Of a DNA stretch of 45,178 nucleotides, positions 8,294 to 44,931 are shown in pieces. A model generated the notes under the pieces. It saw only the letters and a program-made list of their open reading frames with translations. It made no database searches and was not told the origin of the DNA. The translations under genes and the position numbers were made by a program. This DNA is from Clostridia bacterium (GTDB lineage: Bacteria > Bacillota > Clostridia > Christensenellales > CAG-138). How positions within the stretch are numbered: the stretch's first letter is position 1; each line of letters starts with the position of its first letter. The stretch covers positions 1 through 45,178 of the forward strand of contig JAUNJX010000013.1 in assembly GCA_030533005.1 (NCBI GenBank), in the 5' to 3' direction.

Positions 8294-8370
8294 GGGGATG
8301 TAGCCCAGCTGGTTAGAGCGCCTCGTTCACATCGAGGAGGTCACAGGTTCGAGCCCTGTTATCCCCACCA
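8294..8370 (+). tRNA. tRNA-Val (anticodon CAC)
   Basis: This 77-nt tRNA has its CCA end encoded. The acceptor arm pairs GGGGATG with TATCCCC. The anticodon arm CCTCG-TTCACAT-CGAGG presents CAC, which reads GTG valine codons. The T arm is ACAGG-TTCGAGC-CCTGT. The D stem has a C-A mismatch at its third pair (GCCC against GAGC), where most such tRNAs have a T-A pair. The terminator that follows is immediate, so this is a single-tRNA transcript. Confidence 0.96.
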
Positions 8371-9047: not shown

Positions 9048-9617
9048 TTATCCCGCGTATCGTATCACCATGTACAGGCGCACGGTTTTTTTGCCGTGGT
9101 TGGCATAAGCATGCGGCTGATCGCCGCTATAGCGGATGGAGTGCCCGGCGGGCACGGCATAGTCCTCCTCGCCCACCGTAAGCGCCAAGGTGCCCTCATA
9201 CACCATGGCGAATTCCTCCGTGCCGCGCTCGTGCGGGTCGGAAAGGGATGCTGTGCCGGGATCCAGTTCGATGTAGAGGATCTCCAGGCCCCGCCCCGCT
9301 TCGGCGGGGAAGACGGGATAAAGGCGAAAGCCCGGCTGACCGCTGCCAAGCGGCGCAAGCGCCTTATCCTCCACGATTTTGGCCGTGGGGCGTTCCTCGC
9401 TCATGAGCGTTGTAAAAGGAATTTTCAACCCTGTGCTGATCTTCCAAAGCGTTGCCACGGACAGGCCGCACTCGCCACGCTCGATCTGCCCCAGCATGCT
9501 TTTGCTGACGCCCGTGGCCTCCGCCACCTCGTCCAGCGTGATATTGCGTTTGCGCCTTAATTCCCGAAGATTCCCCGCAATGATTTGGTTCAAATCCTCC
9601 GCCGAAGCTGCCGCCAT
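9048..9617 (-). CDS. XRE-family regulator with C-terminal cupin domain
   Basis: This 189-residue transcription factor has an N-terminal XRE helix-turn-helix (about residues 10-65: NLRELRRKRN, LDEVAEATGVSKSMLGQIER) and a C-terminal double-stranded beta-helix cupin (about 110-185, with HERGTEEFAMVYEG and a later PAGHSIRYSGDQPHAY segment). This layout is common in regulators that sense a small metabolite. The start is ATG 9617, chosen for the GGAAGG ribosome site; the frame extends upstream to 9707 into the activase gene. It follows the glycyl radical enzyme and its activase by 38 nt on the same strand, so it is probably the operon's own regulator. The ligand is not known. Confidence 0.88.
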   Translation of the reverse strand: MAAASAEDLNQIIAGNLRELRRKRNITLDEVAEATGVSKSMLGQIERGECGLSVATLWKISTGLKIPFTTLMSEERPTAKIVEDKALAPLGSGQPGFRLYPVFPAEAGRGLEILYIELDPGTASLSDPHERGTEEFAMVYEGTLALTVGEEDYAVPAGHSIRYSGDQPHAYANHGKKTVRLYMVIRYAG

Positions 9618-9655
9618 ACTTTTATCCTTCCATTCTTTCCAATATGATGCGATCG

Positions 9656-10396
9656 TTATAGATAGCTTGCTACATCGATACCCATGCTGCGGGCCATATC
9701 CTGCCAATGTGAAAGCTGCTCGCTTGTCGGTATGCCAAAGCCCGCGTCGGGTGGAGGCATGCCAAGCTCTTTGTACTTTTCCTCGCCAAAACGGTGATAG
9801 GGGAGCAGCTCCAGCGAAGCGTGCGGCGCTTGAGCGCGTAAAAAGGCGAAGGCGCGGGACATGCTGTCGTCATCCGCATTGACGCCGAGAATGACGGGGA
9901 TGCGCACCACCGTGGGCACGCCCAATTCGCCCGTTCTTTGGATGTTCTCCAGGATGAGGCGGTTATCCACGCCCGTAAACCTGCGATGCTGCGCCGGATC
10001 GATGTGCTTGAGGTCGATGAAGATAAGCTCCATCTTTTTGAGCGTCTCCGCAAGCGCGTCAAAGTCAAATTGCCCGCAGGTCTCGATGGCAAGATCGAAG
10101 CCCTCGTCATAAAGCGCGTCCGCAAGCTCCCCTAAGAATGCCGGCTGCGCCGTAGCCTCCCCGCCCGAAAAGGTCACCCCGCCGCCCGAAAAGCGGTAAA
10201 AGATGGCCTGCCGCCGCATCTCCCTGAGGATTTCTTCGGTTTCCACCCAGCGGGTCATGGGGTTTTGCAGCGTCTGCCCTTCGGGATTGGCGCACCACGC
10301 GCAGCGCAGCGGGCAACCGGCCATGAAGATGATGGTGCGGATGCCTTCGCCGTCGTTGACCGAAAAATGCTGTAGCTGCATGATGTAGCCGCCCAT
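9656..10396 (-). CDS. Glycyl radical enzyme activase (radical SAM)
   Basis: This 246-residue radical SAM protein resembles pyruvate formate-lyase activating enzymes. The [4Fe-4S] cluster motif is CPLRCAWC (Cys28, Cys32, Cys35), followed by the family's FSGGEA segment for SAM binding. The length corresponds to the short PflA type, with no extra ferredoxin-like cluster insert that many dehydratase activases carry. It would abstract hydrogen from Gly764 of the neighbouring enzyme to create the radical under anaerobic conditions. The gene begins 24 nt after the glycyl radical enzyme stop codon with a GGGAGG ribosome site, in a three-gene minus-strand operon. The activase is strongly supported; its partner is inferred from adjacency. 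Confidence 0.93.
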   Translation of the reverse strand: MGGYIMQLQHFSVNDGEGIRTIIFMAGCPLRCAWCANPEGQTLQNPMTRWVETEEILREMRRQAIFYRFSGGGVTFSGGEATAQPAFLGELADALYDEGFDLAIETCGQFDFDALAETLKKMELIFIDLKHIDPAQHRRFTGVDNRLILENIQRTGELGVPTVVRIPVILGVNADDDSMSRAFAFLRAQAPHASLELLPYHRFGEEKYKELGMPPPDAGFGIPTSEQLSHWQDMARSMGIDVASYL

Positions 10397-10420: not shown

Positions 10421-12787
10421 TTAGAGGCTGTGCTCCGTCCTTGCGATGATGGCGTCCTGCATGGATTTGGAGAGGTTGACAAACTGTGTGGAATAGCCCG
10501 CCACGCGAACCAGCAGATCCTTGTAGTTTTCCGGGTGTGCCTGCGCGTCCCGCAGCGTTTCCGACGAGATGCAGTTGAACTGCACATGGAATGCGCCCAG
10601 CGAGAACAGCGTCTGGATCATCGCGCCAAGATTGGCCTGCCCGCGCTTGGTGGCGACAAGCTCCGGGTTCAAGCGAAGGTTCAGCAGCGTACCGCCCGAG
10701 TGTATCTCCTGATTGACCTTGGCGGTGGAGCGCATGGCGGCAAGCGGCGTTGATGTATCCGTGCCTACATAGGGGGATACGCCTTCGCTTGAGGGTTCGC
10801 CGTTTTTGCGGCCGTCCGGCGTGGCGCCCAGCACCCTGCCCATGGGGATATAGTTGGAAATGCCCATGAACGCGGTCAAAAACGGAGAGCCGAAGATATC
10901 CTTATATTGGTGAATCTCATCGTAAAAGTGATTGGCGATCTCTATGGCGACGTCGTCTGCGTAATCGTCGTCATTGCCGTATTTGGGACAATCCTGCGCC
11001 TGCCTGCGCAAATCCTCGAAGCCTTCCCAGTTGGCTTGCAGAGCCTTCACGAGCGTTTCCATGGTGCAGACCTTATCCTCGAACACCAGCTTTTTGATCG
11101 CCGCGAGGGAGTTGGCGACGACGGCAAGGCCGATGCCCGTGATGACGGGGCCGATGTTGTATTTTGCGCCGCCATGGGACAGGTCGCGGCCCGTATCCAT
11201 GCAGTTTTCGATGCAGGAGGAGAGGAAGGGGCGCGGCACCATTTCCTTATGCAGCCGCTGCGCCTCCACCGTGAGGATGATGGAATGCCTGCAAAGGTTG
11301 TCGAACTGCTTGAAAAAGGCGGCCTTGCATTCTTCATAGGACGCGAAGGATGCGGCGGGCTTTTCCTCCAAGCCCATCCTTTCTCCCGTCATAAGGCTCA
11401 CGCCCTGATTGAGCGCATATTCCAGCGCCGAACCAAAGTTGACGTTGACGGCGGCTGTCCATTCGCCCGTTTTGCGGTAATGGGGGACGACGCAGCCGCA
11501 GTTGTTCCAGTCCCGCGCGTCCTCGGGTTCGTAGCCGGCGTTGATAAGCATCTGGTAGCCCACGCTGTCGCTGTGGATGGCGGGGAAGCCGGTGCCCTTG
11601 GAGACAAGGTGCGTTACGGCGTCCAAAAATTCCTTGGGGCAATCCGCCTGCACGCGCACGGACAGACCCGGCTGGTGCGTTTTTGCTTCCTCCGTGGCCT
11701 TTAGCGCCATATAGGTAACGGCGTTGGTGCCGTCCTTGCCATCCCGCTTCTTGCCGCCCACGGTCAGGTTTTGGAACTGGTTATAGCCCGCGAAATAATC
11801 GGCGGTGTTGGCCGAGATCGTCCACACCCATTCGGAATATTTCAGCCACAGCGCCTCGATCAGCTCCTGCGCCGCGTCCTCCGTGATGGCGCCTTTTGCG
11901 AGGTCTGCTTCAAAATATGGGTTCATATACTGGTCAAAGCGGCCGGGGTTCAAGGACAGCGGATTTTCCGAGAGTATGCCGCCCACCTGTACGAACCAGA
12001 GGAATTGTATGGCCTCATAGAAGCTTTCGGGCGGGTTTTCCGGCACCCTGCGGCAGTTTTGGGCGATGACGCGCAGCTCGCGCGCACGCACATCGTCTTT
12101 TTCCGTCGCGGCCAGGCGCTCCGCCTCCTCCGCATAGCGGTGCGCATAGCGGATGATGCCCTTGGACGTCCAAAGGATGGAGGTGTAGAAATCCCTCTTA
12201 TCCTCGTCCTCCGGCTTTGTGGGGTCAAGGCTTGCTATATGCGCCTCCGCCTCGCGGATGACGCCGCCAAAGCCTTTTTTGAACAATACATCCTGATAAT
12301 CCGGCGTGATCTCGCCCACGGCCTGCCGCCACTTGGAATCATTGTCGATAATGCCCGTATCCACGCCGATATGGCGGGTATCCTCCGGCAGACGCGCCAG
12401 GAACGCCTCCTCCAAAGACTTGCCCTTCCAATAAGGGAAGATGCTTTCCCGCACGAAAGCCCGCTGTTCATCCGTCATGATATAGGGATCCTGCGGGCGG
12501 GTCGCAAACGTGTCCATTTCCTTGTCTACCCAAAGCCAGGAGAATTCCGGCGTCAGGATGCCGCACTTGCGGAATTCGCCTATCGCGCCCACCACAAGCT
12601 CACCCTCAAAAATATGTACGCCAAGCTGATCGCAGCAGTCGTAAAACGCCCGGGCGCGGCGGATGCACACGGGCAGACCCTCCGTTTCCTTATGGGATTG
12701 CGTCCAAATGAGCGCGCGCTCACAGGAGATTTCCGGCTTGGCCCCGACATAGTTCTGGCGTATCTTTTCTATTCGCTCGCTCACCAT
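10421..12787 (-). CDS. Glycyl radical enzyme of the PFL-like superfamily, substrate unknown
   Basis: This 788-residue protein has the two defining features of a glycyl radical enzyme. The C-terminal glycyl loop is RVAGYS, with Gly764. The cysteine loop is NNCGCVVPHY, with Cys432 expected as the thiyl residue. The length and the positions of both residues are very like trans-4-hydroxyproline dehydratase and other dehydratase-like members. However, the residue two after the Cys is Val434, whereas those members (choline lyase, glycerol/propanediol/hydroxyproline dehydratases) have GCVE. Other family segments present include GRFDQYM and LGATPDGR. It is followed by its activase (24-nt gap) and an XRE-cupin regulator. 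An AAGGAG ribosome site precedes ATG 12787. The reaction cannot be assigned: the Glu-to-Val change argues against a textbook dehydratase. Confidence 0.9.
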   Translation of the reverse strand: MVSERIEKIRQNYVGAKPEISCERALIWTQSHKETEGLPVCIRRARAFYDCCDQLGVHIFEGELVVGAIGEFRKCGILTPEFSWLWVDKEMDTFATRPQDPYIMTDEQRAFVRESIFPYWKGKSLEEAFLARLPEDTRHIGVDTGIIDNDSKWRQAVGEITPDYQDVLFKKGFGGVIREAEAHIASLDPTKPEDEDKRDFYTSILWTSKGIIRYAHRYAEEAERLAATEKDDVRARELRVIAQNCRRVPENPPESFYEAIQFLWFVQVGGILSENPLSLNPGRFDQYMNPYFEADLAKGAITEDAAQELIEALWLKYSEWVWTISANTADYFAGYNQFQNLTVGGKKRDGKDGTNAVTYMALKATEEAKTHQPGLSVRVQADCPKEFLDAVTHLVSKGTGFPAIHSDSVGYQMLINAGYEPEDARDWNNCGCVVPHYRKTGEWTAAVNVNFGSALEYALNQGVSLMTGERMGLEEKPAASFASYEECKAAFFKQFDNLCRHSIILTVEAQRLHKEMVPRPFLSSCIENCMDTGRDLSHGGAKYNIGPVITGIGLAVVANSLAAIKKLVFEDKVCTMETLVKALQANWEGFEDLRRQAQDCPKYGNDDDYADDVAIEIANHFYDEIHQYKDIFGSPFLTAFMGISNYIPMGRVLGATPDGRKNGEPSSEGVSPYVGTDTSTPLAAMRSTAKVNQEIHSGGTLLNLRLNPELVATKRGQANLGAMIQTLFSLGAFHVQFNCISSETLRDAQAHPENYKDLLVRVAGYSTQFVNLSKSMQDAIIARTEHSL

Positions 12788-12867
12788 ATTCGACAGTCTC
12801 CTTTGATTTAGTATTCCGCACTTTTGTGCGCTATTTCATACACAAAGCGTAGCATACTATATGCGCG

Positions 12868-37175: not shown

Positions 37176-37229
37176 GCGTTATCATCAAGACGCGGAGAAA
37201 AATCAACGAAAACGGAGTGCGTGATACAC

Positions 37230-38612
37230 ATGGACAATCAACTGCTGCGAAACATCCCCAAGGTGGACGAGCTGCTAAGGACGATCGAACAATGCGGCTG
37301 CTGCGCGGATGCGCCCTTGCAAACGGTGACGGAGGCCGTGCGTGAAGCCTTGGAGGAACTGCGTACGGGGCTTAAGGATGGAAGCCTTCAGGCGCTGCCG
37401 GATGCCGACGCCCTTTGTGCGCGCATTGCAGCACTTGTGCGGCAGGCGCGGCTGCCGTCGCTGCGGGGTGTAATCAACGGCACCGGCGTGGTGCTGCATA
37501 CCAATCTTGGCAGAGCCTGTCTTTCGGAGCGGGCTGTGGCGGCGGTGAACGATGCGGCGCGCAATTATTCTACCCTTGAATACGATGTGCAAAACGGCTG
37601 CAGGGGCAAGCGCTATGCGCATGTGGAGGGTCTGCTTTGTAAGCTTACGGGGGCAGAGAGCGCCTTGGTCGTCAACAACAACGCGGCGGCGGTGCTGCTG
37701 ATCCTTTCCGCCATGGCGGCGGGGGGAGAGGTCGTGGTTTCCCGCGGGGAGTTGGTGGAGATCGGCGGATCCTTCCGCATACCCGAGATCATGGAAAGCT
37801 GCGGCTGCAAGCTGCATGAGGTGGGCGCCACCAACAAGACGCATCTTGGGGATTACGAGCGCGGGATCAATGAGAATACGCGGGCGCTGTTAAAGGTACA
37901 CACCAGCAATTATAAAATCATGGGCTTTACAAAAAACGTGGAGCTGGACGAGATGGTAGCCCTGGGGCGGGAGCGGGAGCTCCCCGTCATACAGGATCTT
38001 GGCAGCGGGCTGCTCTTGGATTTAAGCCCGCTAGGCATACAGGACGAGCCCACCGTGCAGGAATCCATCCGCGCGGGCGTGGACGTGGTGTCCTTCTCGG
38101 GCGATAAGCTGCTGGGCGGCCCGCAGGCGGGCATTATCGTCGGCAAAAAATGCTATATCGATCTTTTGAAAAAGCATCCGCTGCATAGAGCCATGCGGGT
38201 GGATAAGATGACGCTAAGCGCTTTGGAGGTCACGCTCCGAAGCTACGCGGAGGGTACGGCGCTACAGGAGATCCCCACGCTTTCCATGCTTGCGGCGCAA
38301 GCCCTGAACCTGCGGGAGCGGGCGGAGCGCTTCCAGCGCGCGCTGCTTGACGCTAACATAGAGGCTGAGGTCGTGGCGGAATGGGATCAGGTGGGCGGCG
38401 GTTCCGCGCCCACGCAGCTCTTGCCTACCTATGCCGTGGCCTTACGGCCCAAAGATGGCAGCGTTGACGGGCTGGAGAGAGCCATGCGCATACGCGAGCG
38501 ACCCGTGATCGGGCGGATTGCCCACGACGCGTATCTGTTGGATATGCGCACGCTGCGGGAGGATGAGCTGCCTTGCGTGCAGCAGGCGTTGAAGGAGAGC
38601 GGACTGGTATGA
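37230..38612 (+). CDS. selA: L-seryl-tRNA(Sec) selenium transferase SelA
   Basis: This ~460-residue pyridoxal phosphate enzyme converts seryl-tRNA(Sec) to selenocysteyl-tRNA using selenophosphate. The PLP lysine is Lys293 in SFSGDKLLGG. Other family segments are INGTGVVLHTNLGRA near residue 85 and SALVVNNNAAAVLLIL. The ATG at 37230 is used; a GTG at 37221 would sit too close to the GGAG site. It overlaps selB by 4 nt (ATGA), so the two are translationally coupled. Neither selC (tRNA-Sec) nor selD was seen in the window. Confidence 0.97.
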   Translation: MDNQLLRNIPKVDELLRTIEQCGCCADAPLQTVTEAVREALEELRTGLKDGSLQALPDADALCARIAALVRQARLPSLRGVINGTGVVLHTNLGRACLSERAVAAVNDAARNYSTLEYDVQNGCRGKRYAHVEGLLCKLTGAESALVVNNNAAAVLLILSAMAAGGEVVVSRGELVEIGGSFRIPEIMESCGCKLHEVGATNKTHLGDYERGINENTRALLKVHTSNYKIMGFTKNVELDEMVALGRERELPVIQDLGSGLLLDLSPLGIQDEPTVQESIRAGVDVVSFSGDKLLGGPQAGIIVGKKCYIDLLKKHPLHRAMRVDKMTLSALEVTLRSYAEGTALQEIPTLSMLAAQALNLRERAERFQRALLDANIEAEVVAEWDQVGGGSAPTQLLPTYAVALRPKDGSVDGLERAMRIRERPVIGRIAHDAYLLDMRTLREDELPCVQQALKESGLV

Positions 38613-40519
38613 AACATGTCATCATCGGCACGGCGGGTCATGTGGATCACGGAAAGACCATGCTGGTACAGGCATTGACCGGCATTTTCACGGATCGGCT
38701 GGAGGAGGAAAAGCGGCGCGGCATCACCATCGAGCTGGGCTTTGCGCATCTGGATTTTGAGGATGGGCTGCAGGCGGGCATCGTGGATGTGCCGGGTCAT
38801 GAGAAATTCATCAAAAACATGCTTGCGGGCGCGGGCGGCATCGACCTTTGCATGCTGGTCGTGGCGGCGGACGAAGGGTTTATGCCGCAGACCGTGGAAC
38901 ATTTGGATATCGTATCCTTGCTTGGCATACAGGACGGGCTGATCGTGCTGACCAAGAAGGACATGGTGGACGAGGAATGGCTGGAAATGGTGCGCGACGA
39001 GGCCGCGGAGCGCGTCAAGGGCACCTTCTTGGAGGACAAGCCCATTCTGGCCGTTTCCGCGCAAACGGGAGAAGGCATTGACGAGCTGCGGGCGTGTTTG
39101 CACGAGCTTGTGAGCAAGCAGGCGGATAAAAACAGCCGCATACCCTTCCGGCTTCCCATCGACCGCGTGTTTTCCGTGGACGGCTTTGGCACGGTGGTCA
39201 CGGGCACGCTCATCGAGGGATGCATGAACGAAGGGGAAGCGGCGCAGCTTGCGCCCTCTGGCGCGGAAACACGGATTCGCAATTTGCAGGTGCACGGCAA
39301 GGATGTGGAAACAGCCTATGCCGGGCAGAGGGTGGCGGTCAACCTTGCGGGGCTTCGCAAAACGGATATCCAGCGGGGCGATCTGGTCGCCAAGCCCGGC
39401 AGCGTGCGCGTTTCCTATATGCTGGACGTGCGCTTGCAAAATCTGGCGGATTCCAACCGCGTCATTCAAAACAATTCGCAGGTGCACCTTTACCATGGCG
39501 CGGCGGTGCTCTTGACCAAGGTGATCCTGCTGGACAGGGACGAGCTGCATCCGGGTGAGAGCTGCTATGCGCAGCTTCGCATGAGCGAGCCTATCGCCAG
39601 CAAAAACGGGGATCATTTCGTGATCCGCTTCTATTCGCCGCTGGAGACCATCGGCGGCGGCGTGATACTGGACGACGCGCCGCAGCGGCATAAGCGGCAT
39701 GTACCCGCTGTGCTGGAGGCGCTCAAGATCAAGGAGAGCGGGTCGGAAGGGGATATGCTCTATCAGATCATGGCGGAATTCGGCGCCACGCTTCCCGCGC
39801 AAGCGCAGATCGCCGCCAAGCTGACGCTGGATAACGAAGCCTTGGAGCGCGAGCTGCAAGCGTTGCTGGAGACGGGGCGGATTGCCGAGCCCTTGCCCGG
39901 CCGTTTTGTTGCCGCAAAGGTGCTGGACGACTTGGGCGCTGCCTGCTGCGGGATACTGGGGGAATACCATAAGAAGAACCCCTTGCACGCGGGCATGAAG
40001 GCTGCCGAGCTTAGGCAGAAGCTGTTTAAGGGCATGGAGCAGGCTGCTGCGGACGCTTTGCTTGGCGAGCTGTGCCGGGGCGGACGCATACAGCGCCATG
40101 GCGAACGCTATGCGCTTGCGGATTTTCAGGTGCATTTTACCAAAAAGCAGACCGTCCTTAAGGACAAGCTGCTGCAATATTTCCAAAAAGCGGATATTGA
40201 GCCGGACAGCGTAGAGGATGTGCTTGCGACCTTCCCGCAAAACGAGCGGACAGACTGCAAGCAGGTTTTGGACAGTCTCTTTACGGGCGGCGAGCTTGTG
40301 CTGCTTTCCCCGCAGATATGCTATCATAAGGACGCCTTTGATAAGGCTTGCCAGGCCGTGTACCGGCATTTCGAGGATCATGAGCTCATTACGCTGGCGG
40401 AATTCCGCGATGCGCTGGGCACCTCCCGCAAGTATGCCATGGCGGTGTTGGAGTATTTGGACAGCAGCCGCGTTACCAAAAAGGAAGGGGATGCGCGACG
40501 GTTGCTCAAGCGCCCGTGA
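38609..40519 (+). CDS. selB: Selenocysteine-specific elongation factor SelB
   Basis: This 636-residue GTPase delivers Sec-tRNA to the ribosome at UGA codons that have a SECIS hairpin. The GTP motifs are [11 protein letters not shown] (G1), DVPGHEKF (G3) and LTKKDM (G4), in the first 170 residues. Three beta-barrel domains follow. The C-terminal ~230 residues are winged-helix domains that bind the SECIS RNA. It overlaps selA by 4 nt and is followed after 30 nt by the LysR gene. It must read the UGA in grdB in this window. Confidence 0.97.
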
Positions 40520-43626: not shown

Positions 43627-44931
43627 ATGAGTTATCGTGTCGTACATTATATTAACCAGTTCTTCGCCAACATTGGCGGCGAGGAAATGGCGCATGTGCC
43701 TCCCGAGCTTCGGGAAGGCGCTGTCGGCCCCGGCATGGCGTTCAATCAGGAATGGAAGGGCGAAGCGGAGATCGTAAAGACCATCGTTTGCGGCGACTCC
43801 TATTTTGCTGAGCATGAAAAAGACGCCAAGGCTAAGGTACTTGAATGGGTCAAGGCTGAAAAGCCGGATATGTTTGTCGCTGGCCCCGCCTTCAACGCTG
43901 GCCGTTACGGCTATGCGTGCGCCAACATCGCGTTGGCCGTGAAGGAAGAACTCGGCATCCCGGTACTCACCGGCATGTATGAGGAGAATCCCGGCGCGGA
44001 CATGAAGGATAAGGTATTGATCGTAGCCACCACCAACAGTGCCGCGGGCATGCGCAAGGCTGCTCCCGTCATGGCAAAGCTGGCTATGAAGCTGATGAAG
44101 GGCGAAAAGCTGGGCGCTTCCTGTGAGGAAGGCTATATGCCCAACGGTATCCGCTGCAACTTCTTTGAGAAAGAGCGCGGCTCCAAGCGTGCCGTGAATA
44201 TGCTGCTCAAGAAGCTCGCGGGCGAACCCTTCACCACGGAATATCCCATGCCTACCTTTGACCGCGTAGCCCCCAATCCCGCCATCAAGGATATGAGCAA
44301 GGCCGTTGTCGCGCTTTGCACCTCCGGCGGTATTGTGCCCAAGGGCAACCCGGATCATATCGAGTCTTCCTCCGCGTCCCATTACGGCGAATATTGCCTG
44401 GATGGCGTGGATGTGCTGACCGAGGCCACCTACGAGACCGCCCACGGCGGTTACGACCCCGTCTATGCCAACCAGGATCCCAACCGCGTACTGCCCGTTG
44501 ACGTCATGCGCGAGTTTGAGAAGGAAGGTAAGATCGGCAAGCTGCATAACTATTTCTACACCACCGTTGGTAACGGCACCGCCGTTGCTTCCGCGCGCGC
44601 CTTTGCAAAGGAATATGCGCAGAAGCTGCTCAAGGCAGGCGTGAATGCTGTTATCATGACCTCTACCTGAGGAACCTGCACACGTTGCGGCGCAACGATG
44701 GTAAAAGAAATCGAAAGAGCAGGCATCCCCGTTGTACATATGTGCACGGTAACGCCTATTTCCATGACGGTCGGCGCGAACAGAATCGTTCCGACGATCG
44801 CAATCCCGCACCCGCTGGGCAATCCCGCTCTGACCCACGACGAAGAGTATGCCCTGCGTAAGAAGCTGGTGACGCGCGCTCTGGAAGCTCTGACCACCGA
44901 GGTTCAGGATCAGACGATCTTTGAGGTCTAA
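43627..44931 (+). CDS. grdB: Glycine reductase component B selenoprotein GrdB (UGA as Sec)
   Basis: The frame runs 435 codons from ATG 43627 to TAA 44929-44931 and has one in-frame TGA at 44668-44670 (codon 348). Translating it as selenocysteine gives STUGTCTRCGATM, the typical GrdB active site with a U-x-x-C-x-x-C pattern. GrdB is the selenoprotein subunit of component B and passes the glycine carbon to GrdA as carboxymethyl-selenide. The start is ATG 43627 (8 nt after GGAGG). The 3' part (44671-44931) is not a separate gene. grdA, grdC and grdD should lie beyond the window's end. Confidence 0.96.
44668..44703 (+). promoter_or_regulatory. bSECIS hairpin of grdB
   Basis: UGA is followed by a hairpin CGTTGC (44683-44688)-GGC-GCAACG (44692-44697), with the loop 18 nt after the UGA, in the range for bacterial SECIS elements. 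The outer bases (ACC and GGT) may add pairs. SelB, encoded upstream, would bind here. Confidence 0.8.

What the first reader, a model, noticed from the sequence alone, without database searches (positions are those of the whole stretch)
10421..12787. Glycyl radical enzyme with Val in place of the catalytic-loop Glu
The Cys432 loop reads GCVVPH instead of the GCVE found in choline lyase and the known diol and hydroxyproline dehydratases, while Gly764 and overall length match. The change removes the residue thought to act as a base in those enzymes, so the reaction may differ. Activase and XRE-cupin regulator are adjacent; no substrate gene (microcompartment, transporter) is beside them to guide a guess.
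Basis: partly seen in the sequence, partly recalled or inferred. Interest (0 to 1): 0.62.

Follow-up and report, generated by a model that had tools for sequence, protein, structure and literature searches.

The report
Glycyl radical enzyme missing its glutamate
This gene encodes an oxygen-sensitive radical enzyme from a large, uncharacterised family of anaerobic bacteria in which a catalytic glutamate shared by its known relatives is always valine, so it probably carries out chemistry on a still unknown, probably amino-acid-like, substrate.

Summary
Window 10421-12787 (-) encodes a 788-aa glycyl radical enzyme (GRE) with Cys432 and Gly764, and the Cys loop reads NNCGCVVPH. It is not a one-off: all 80 relatives fetched (63-89% identity, several phyla) have GCVVP, as do further members at 60-62%. 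The next GRE in 299 sampled genomes is at 41% or less. No characterised enzyme I could read has this loop, and every NCBIfam equivalog scores below its cut-off. The nearest known enzymes, choline lyase (CutC) and N-methyl-cis-4-hydroxy-L-proline dehydratase (PDB 8id1), keep the Glu. The family has instead an invariant Glu159 at the beta1 position that is Asp216 in CutC and His160 in HypD. I favour a relocated acid/base over loss of acid-base chemistry. Invariant Lys152/Arg154, recurrent M20 peptidase/DUF5058 neighbours and one amino-acid carrier under the same operator suggest an amino-acid-type substrate. The module is GRE, activase and XRE-cupin regulator. Substrate and reaction remain unproven. 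A second finding: the activase lost its ferredoxin domain several times within this family.

The parts
10421..12787 (-). Glycyl radical enzyme, 788 aa, CXV family
   Evidence: PF02901 720 bits, PF01228 110 bits; 80 relatives
11480..11500 (-). Cys loop codons 430-436 (CGCVVPH): radical Cys432 at 11492-11494, Val434 in place of the CXE Glu at 11486-11488
   Evidence: Alignment to CutC; GCVVP invariant in the family
12311..12313 (-). Codon of invariant Glu159, at the CutC Asp216 / HypD His160 position
10496..10498 (-). Codon of Gly764, the glycyl radical residue
9656..10396 (-). Radical SAM activase, 246 aa, CxxxCxxC, no ferredoxin domain
   Evidence: PF04055, TIGR02494 over cut-off; comparison with relatives
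9048..9707 (-). XRE-cupin transcriptional regulator (the TTG start overlaps the activase; the true start is probably further inside)
   Evidence: PF01381, PF07883; 45 of 81 loci carry it
12823..12842 (-). Putative operator of the regulator, degenerate copy of TGTRYGTTATAACGYAYAAA, 36-55 nt before the GRE start

Best explanation
This is a member of an uncharacterised, apparently isofunctional GRE family ('CXV family'). Shown: GRE domains and residues, adjacent activase, clade-wide loss of the CXE Glu, clade-wide Glu159. Inferred: the adjacent radical SAM activase makes a glycyl radical on Gly764, which makes a thiyl radical on Cys432. The thiyl removes a hydrogen atom from a small amino-acid-type carboxylate held by Lys152/Arg154. 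A leaving group is then expelled in a 1,2-elimination in which Glu159, on strand beta1, does the acid/base work that the CXE Glu does in other eliminases. The product needs no dedicated pathway gene and enters general amino-acid metabolism. The XRE-cupin protein controls the operon through the TTATAAC palindrome in response to substrate or product.
For: Closest relatives are eliminases: CutC and the N-methyl-hydroxyproline dehydratases. Glu159 is invariant and lies at the site giving CutC Asp216, HypD His160, IslA Gln193 (PMC8473560), 2.5 A from the CXE Glu in HypD (PMC7077986). 8id1-type enzymes have Glu at both sites, a plausible stepping stone; L106/L187 have Glu159 with Gln at the CXE place. 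Lys152 and Arg154 are invariant, and HypD and IslA also use a beta1 Arg near an anionic group. Amino-acid hints: M20 peptidase/DUF5058 cassette beside the GRE in several lineages, absent from 30 control stretches, and in two genomes the genome's only DUF5058 gene; D-serine, threonine or diaminopropionate ammonia-lyase next to it in L044, L004, L007/L008; operator in front of an amino acid carrier in S. hydroxybenzoicus.
Against: No activity data. Co-variation of Glu159 with CXE loss rests on too few independent changes to be significant, and L181 and L171 lost the Glu without gaining Glu159. Most loci have no amino-acid gene beside the GRE, and the window genome has no DUF5058 gene. The carrier link is not conserved in 71-86% identical orthologues. 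The predicted structure is poor at the active site.
Confidence: 0.4

Rival explanations
1. A non-eliminase GRE: with no base next to the thiyl radical, the enzyme carries out a purely radical step such as decarboxylation, C-C cleavage (PFL-like, perhaps using the Cys430-Gly-Cys432 pair) or a rearrangement of an amino or oxo acid.
For: The CXE motif is described for eliminases only (PMC7077986); the PFL-type row L073_oth has Ser at that place; Cys430 is invariant.
Against: Nearest relatives by sequence and tree are eliminases, PFL is only 19% identical; the 8id1-type dehydratases also have the Cys at -2 (NPCGCVE), so it is not diagnostic.
Confidence: 0.3
2. An amine or betaine lyase/dehydratase close in function to CutC or to the N-methyl-hydroxyproline dehydratases, with a quaternary or tertiary amine substrate.
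For: Best profile matches are CutC and 8id1; Phe332 and Phe338, the CutC Phe389/Phe395 positions, are invariant.
Against: CutC Tyr208, Asp216 and Tyr506 are Ser151, Glu159 and Asn448; score 702 against a cut-off of 1050; no cut genes or methyltransferase seen beside the loci.
Confidence: 0.15
3. A catalytically dead or purely regulatory GRE homologue.
For: It lacks a residue that is essential in HypD (E436Q inactive, PMC7077986).
Against: Cys432, Gly764 and about 270 other positions are near-invariant across several phyla; an activase is beside the gene in 78 of 81 loci (the 80 relatives plus the window's own) and an operator is kept upstream.
Confidence: 0.03

Closest known systems
Choline trimethylamine-lyase CutC (PDB 5fau, 5a0u)
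   Same: Fold, length, Cys and Gly loops, Phe389/Phe395 and Thr502 positions; 36-37% identity
   Different: No CXE Glu; choline-cage Tyr208 and Tyr506 are Ser and Asn; Asp216 is Glu; no cut gene cluster; 702 bits against a cut-off of 1050
N-methyl-cis-4-hydroxy-L-proline dehydratase (PDB 8id1, I. bartlettii)
   Same: WNxCGCV loop start, Lys152, Glu159 and His734 positions; 36-41% identity
   Different: Keeps the CXE Glu (NPCGCVETN); differs at Asp150, Trp153, Arg154, Phe332, Val434, Asn448; separate clade
trans-4-hydroxy-L-proline dehydratase HypD (PDB 6vxc)
   Same: GRE eliminase fold; small, locally organised gene set
   Different: HypD Asp278, Ser334, Glu436 and His160 are Leu277, Phe332, Val434 and Glu159; 570 bits against 1100
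Pyruvate formate-lyase
   Same: No Glu in the Cys loop of the PFL-type row L073_oth; PflA-length activase without ferredoxin domain in the window's clade
   Different: 19% identity; no adjacent Cys-Cys pair; 147 bits against 994

Membership tests
Glycyl radical enzyme superfamily | Glycine radical domain with RVxG[FWY] motif, a Cys in the mid-protein loop, and a radical SAM activase nearby | tested here: met
CXE GRE eliminases | CXE motif in the Cys loop | tested here: not met
   CVV in the window protein and in all relatives
CXE GRE eliminases | Catalyses an elimination | not testable with these tools
   Needs an enzyme assay
CutC | NCBIfam TIGR04394 cut-off of 1050 bits | tested here: not met
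   702.5 bits
CutC | Substrate residues Tyr208, Asp216, Glu491, Tyr506 | tested here: not met
   Ser151, Glu159, Val434, Asn448
HypD | NF043068 cut-off of 1100 bits; Asp278 and Glu436 | tested here: not met
   569.8 bits; Leu277 and Val434 against HypD-like rows
N-methyl-cis-4-hydroxy-L-proline dehydratase (8id1) | Membership of the 8id1 clade with the CVETN loop | tested here: not met
   36-41% identity, CVVPH loop, separate clade
Pyruvate formate-lyase | TIGR01255 cut-off; adjacent Cys-Cys | tested here: not met
   147.2 against 994.2 bits; Cys-Gly-Cys instead
Aminoacyl radical enzymes (PMC11528403) | Ala, Ser or Thr in place of the radical Gly | tested here: not met
   Gly764, invariant in the family (definition)

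The most novel reading that the evidence does not exclude
The family catalyses a radical reaction not yet known for any GRE, on an amino-acid-type substrate, using either no general base or a base relocated to strand beta1; it would be a widespread, unassigned step of anaerobic amino-acid catabolism.
Probability: 0.45. Interest if true: 0.75.

Novelty: new variant of a known kind. Interest (0 to 1): 0.52.

Why it matters
GREs carry out central chemistry of gut and other anaerobes (TMA, H2S, skatole, hydroxyproline use), and the CXE Glu is treated as a conserved residue of the eliminases. A clade found in several phyla that always lacks it, and always has Glu at the neighbouring beta1 site, offers a direct natural test of how far that Glu is needed and whether the base can move. 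It also marks an unassigned catabolic enzyme in amino-acid-fermenting gut and rumen bacteria such as Evtepia, Eubacterium pyruvativorans and Megasphaera. The repeated loss of the activase ferredoxin domain within one family is a natural experiment on what those extra clusters do.

Tried and rejected
(1) Assignment by NCBIfam equivalogs: all below cut-off. (2) A conserved pathway gene: all-against-all clustering of neighbours over 81 loci found only activase and XRE-cupin as general neighbours. (3) A purine or uric-acid link (adenine deaminase, purine permeases, DpaL in single loci): not recurrent by BLAST, dropped. (4) Regulon through the operator: outside the GRE operons most exact sites that I opened fall inside ORFs; only the AGCS carrier of S. 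hydroxybenzoicus is a good promoter site, and it is not conserved in orthologues. The window genome has a borderline site (13.5 bits; the highest shuffled score was 13.6) upstream of one of its two AGCS genes. (5) Tree test of Glu159/CXE co-variation: too few independent changes. (6) Glycine-reductase co-occurrence: 21 of 41 family genomes against 93 of 299 in the phylum, a modest and phylogenetically confounded excess, not used as proof. (8) Literature: no paper in the held library described this family in the searches made; subscription papers with GRE similarity networks could not be checked. (9) The Cys-loop residues of BSS, HplG and HPA decarboxylase were not read directly.

Full report
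Observation. The minus-strand ORF 10421-12787 is a full-length GRE with Pfam PFL-like and Gly_radical domains. The Cys loop is DWNNCGCVVPHYRKTGEW with Cys432, and the radical motif is VRVAGYS with Gly764. Aligned to D. alaskensis CutC, Val434 replaces Glu491.

It is a family, not a mutation. A genome-contig scan returned 80 loci at 63-89% identity in Oscillospiraceae, Lachnospiraceae, Clostridium, Sedimentibacter, Tissierella, Megasphaera, Synergistaceae, Treponema, Propionibacteriaceae and Alphaproteobacteria. All read GCVVP. A sample of 299 genomes of the phylum gave members at 72, 64 and 60%, then a gap down to 41%. On a tree of 60 GREs, built without the columns of interest, the family is one clade (SH-aLRT 100) next to CutC plus the 8id1 type (94, not starred). 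No NCBIfam equivalog reaches its cut-off. The closest solved structures include CutC, N-methyl-cis-4-hydroxy-L-proline dehydratase 8id1 and N-methyl-cis-4-hydroxy-D-proline dehydratase 8iof.

Active site. The CXE Glu is described as conserved in GRE eliminases and is essential in HypD (PMC7077986, PMC8473560). Here it is Val in every member. Across 77 full-length members Asp150, Ser151, Lys152, Trp153, Arg154, Glu159, Phe332, Phe338, Cys430, Cys432, Val434, Pro435, Thr444, Asn448 and His734 are invariant or nearly so. Glu159 occupies the beta1 site that contributes CutC Asp216, HypD His160 and IslA Gln193, and HypD His160 is 2.5 A from its CXE Glu. Among 152 GREs tabulated, 8id1-type rows have Glu at both sites. 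The only other GREs with Glu159, L106 and L187, have Gln at the CXE position. Three rows lack the CXE Glu without Glu159: L181, L171 and the PFL-type L073_oth. On the tree this is too few independent changes to be significant. I therefore propose, as an inference, that the carboxylate moved from the Cys loop to beta1.

Surroundings. The general module is GRE, activase (78 of 81 loci) and XRE-cupin regulator (45 of 81 loci in the main cluster). Upstream of the GRE or of the regulator lies a palindrome, TGTRYGTTATAACGYAYAAA. It scores above the 99th percentile of shuffled sequences in 25 of 47 upstream regions, with the caveat that the matrix was trained on those regions. The window copy is at 12823-12842. 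In Clostridium sp. MD294 (genome of L056) an exact core stands 21 bp before the regulator gene.

Substrate hints from relatives. In L001, L009, L075 and L044 the GRE-activase pair is followed on the same strand by genes of one cassette: a DUF5058 membrane protein in all four, a second small membrane protein and an M20 peptidase of the glutamate-carboxypeptidase/deacylase type in L001, L009 and L044, and an HTH regulator in L001, L009 and L075. L145 has the regulator and the membrane pair in the opposite direction, next to an amidohydrolase of the D-aminoacylase kind. L035 has the M20, the regulator, an enolase-superfamily enzyme and an alanine racemase downstream. L015 has two M20 genes upstream. 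In genomes G118 and G491 the only DUF5058 gene of the genome lies within 10 kb of the GRE; 30 control stretches contain none. The L044 operon ends in D-serine ammonia-lyase; L007/L008 have diaminopropionate ammonia-lyase and L004 threonine ammonia-lyase after the activase. One operator outside the GRE operons lies 56 bp before an AGCS amino acid carrier in S. hydroxybenzoicus. These hints point to an amino-acid-type substrate but are patchy, and most loci have none.

Activase. The window's activase (246 aa) lacks the domain with two ferredoxin-type Cys clusters that the more distant family members carry. On the family tree presence or absence needs at least five changes, which is best read as repeated loss.

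Verdict. This is a real, discrete, uncharacterised GRE family that breaks the CXE rule. It is best filed as a new variant of the eliminase-like GREs. The reaction is unknown. Elimination from an amino-acid-type substrate with Glu159 as acid/base is my leading proposal at 0.4, with a non-eliminase reaction close behind at 0.3.

Noticed in passing
window 9656-10396; activases of L040, L043, L044, L048, L065 against L031-L039 and L053-L079: The GRE activase lacks its ferredoxin domain (two Cys clusters) in the window's clade and in several separate lineages of the same family; at least five changes on the family tree.
   Followed up: partly
L106, L187 (GCTQP, GCIQP), L181 (GCVQP), L171 (GCNSP): Other unassigned GREs that also lack the CXE Glu; L106 and L187 share Glu159 with this family, L181 and L171 do not.
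   Followed up: no
window 12823-12842; L009, L031-L048, L058, L069, L076 upstream of the GRE: Palindromic TTATAAC operator, sometimes in two copies about 19-24 bp apart, probably bound by the XRE-cupin regulator.
   Followed up: partly
L233:6638-8046 (Sedimentibacter hydroxybenzoicus): The same palindrome lies 56 bp before an AGCS amino acid carrier gene, the one good site found outside the GRE operons.
   Followed up: partly
window 37221-40519 and 42307 to about 44940: SelA, SelB and glycine/sarcosine/betaine reductase genes; the ORF after the component B subunit reads through an in-frame TGA (selenocysteine) at 44668-44670, so the host is probably a Stickland fermenter.
   Followed up: partly
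L063:12376-13278 (Intestinibacter bartlettii) and L070:9995-12367 (Terrisporobacter petrolearius): The activase is split into two ORFs in L063 and the GRE into two in L070: pseudogenes or sequencing errors.
   Followed up: no
L150:6892-16472: An 8id1-type GRE lies between a branched-chain amino acid ABC transporter and a second GRE (HypD-like) with a proline-racemase-like gene, judged from the sequences by eye.
   Followed up: no
L044:13348-17688; L009:13175-18097; L145:2104-5007: A DUF5058 protein, a second small membrane protein without Pfam or NCBIfam match and, variously, M20 peptidases and a 450-aa HTH regulator recur together and look like an undescribed transport/deacylation cassette.
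   Followed up: partly
window 8294-8370: tRNA-Val (cac) upstream of the tRNA-binding-domain gene.
   Followed up: no
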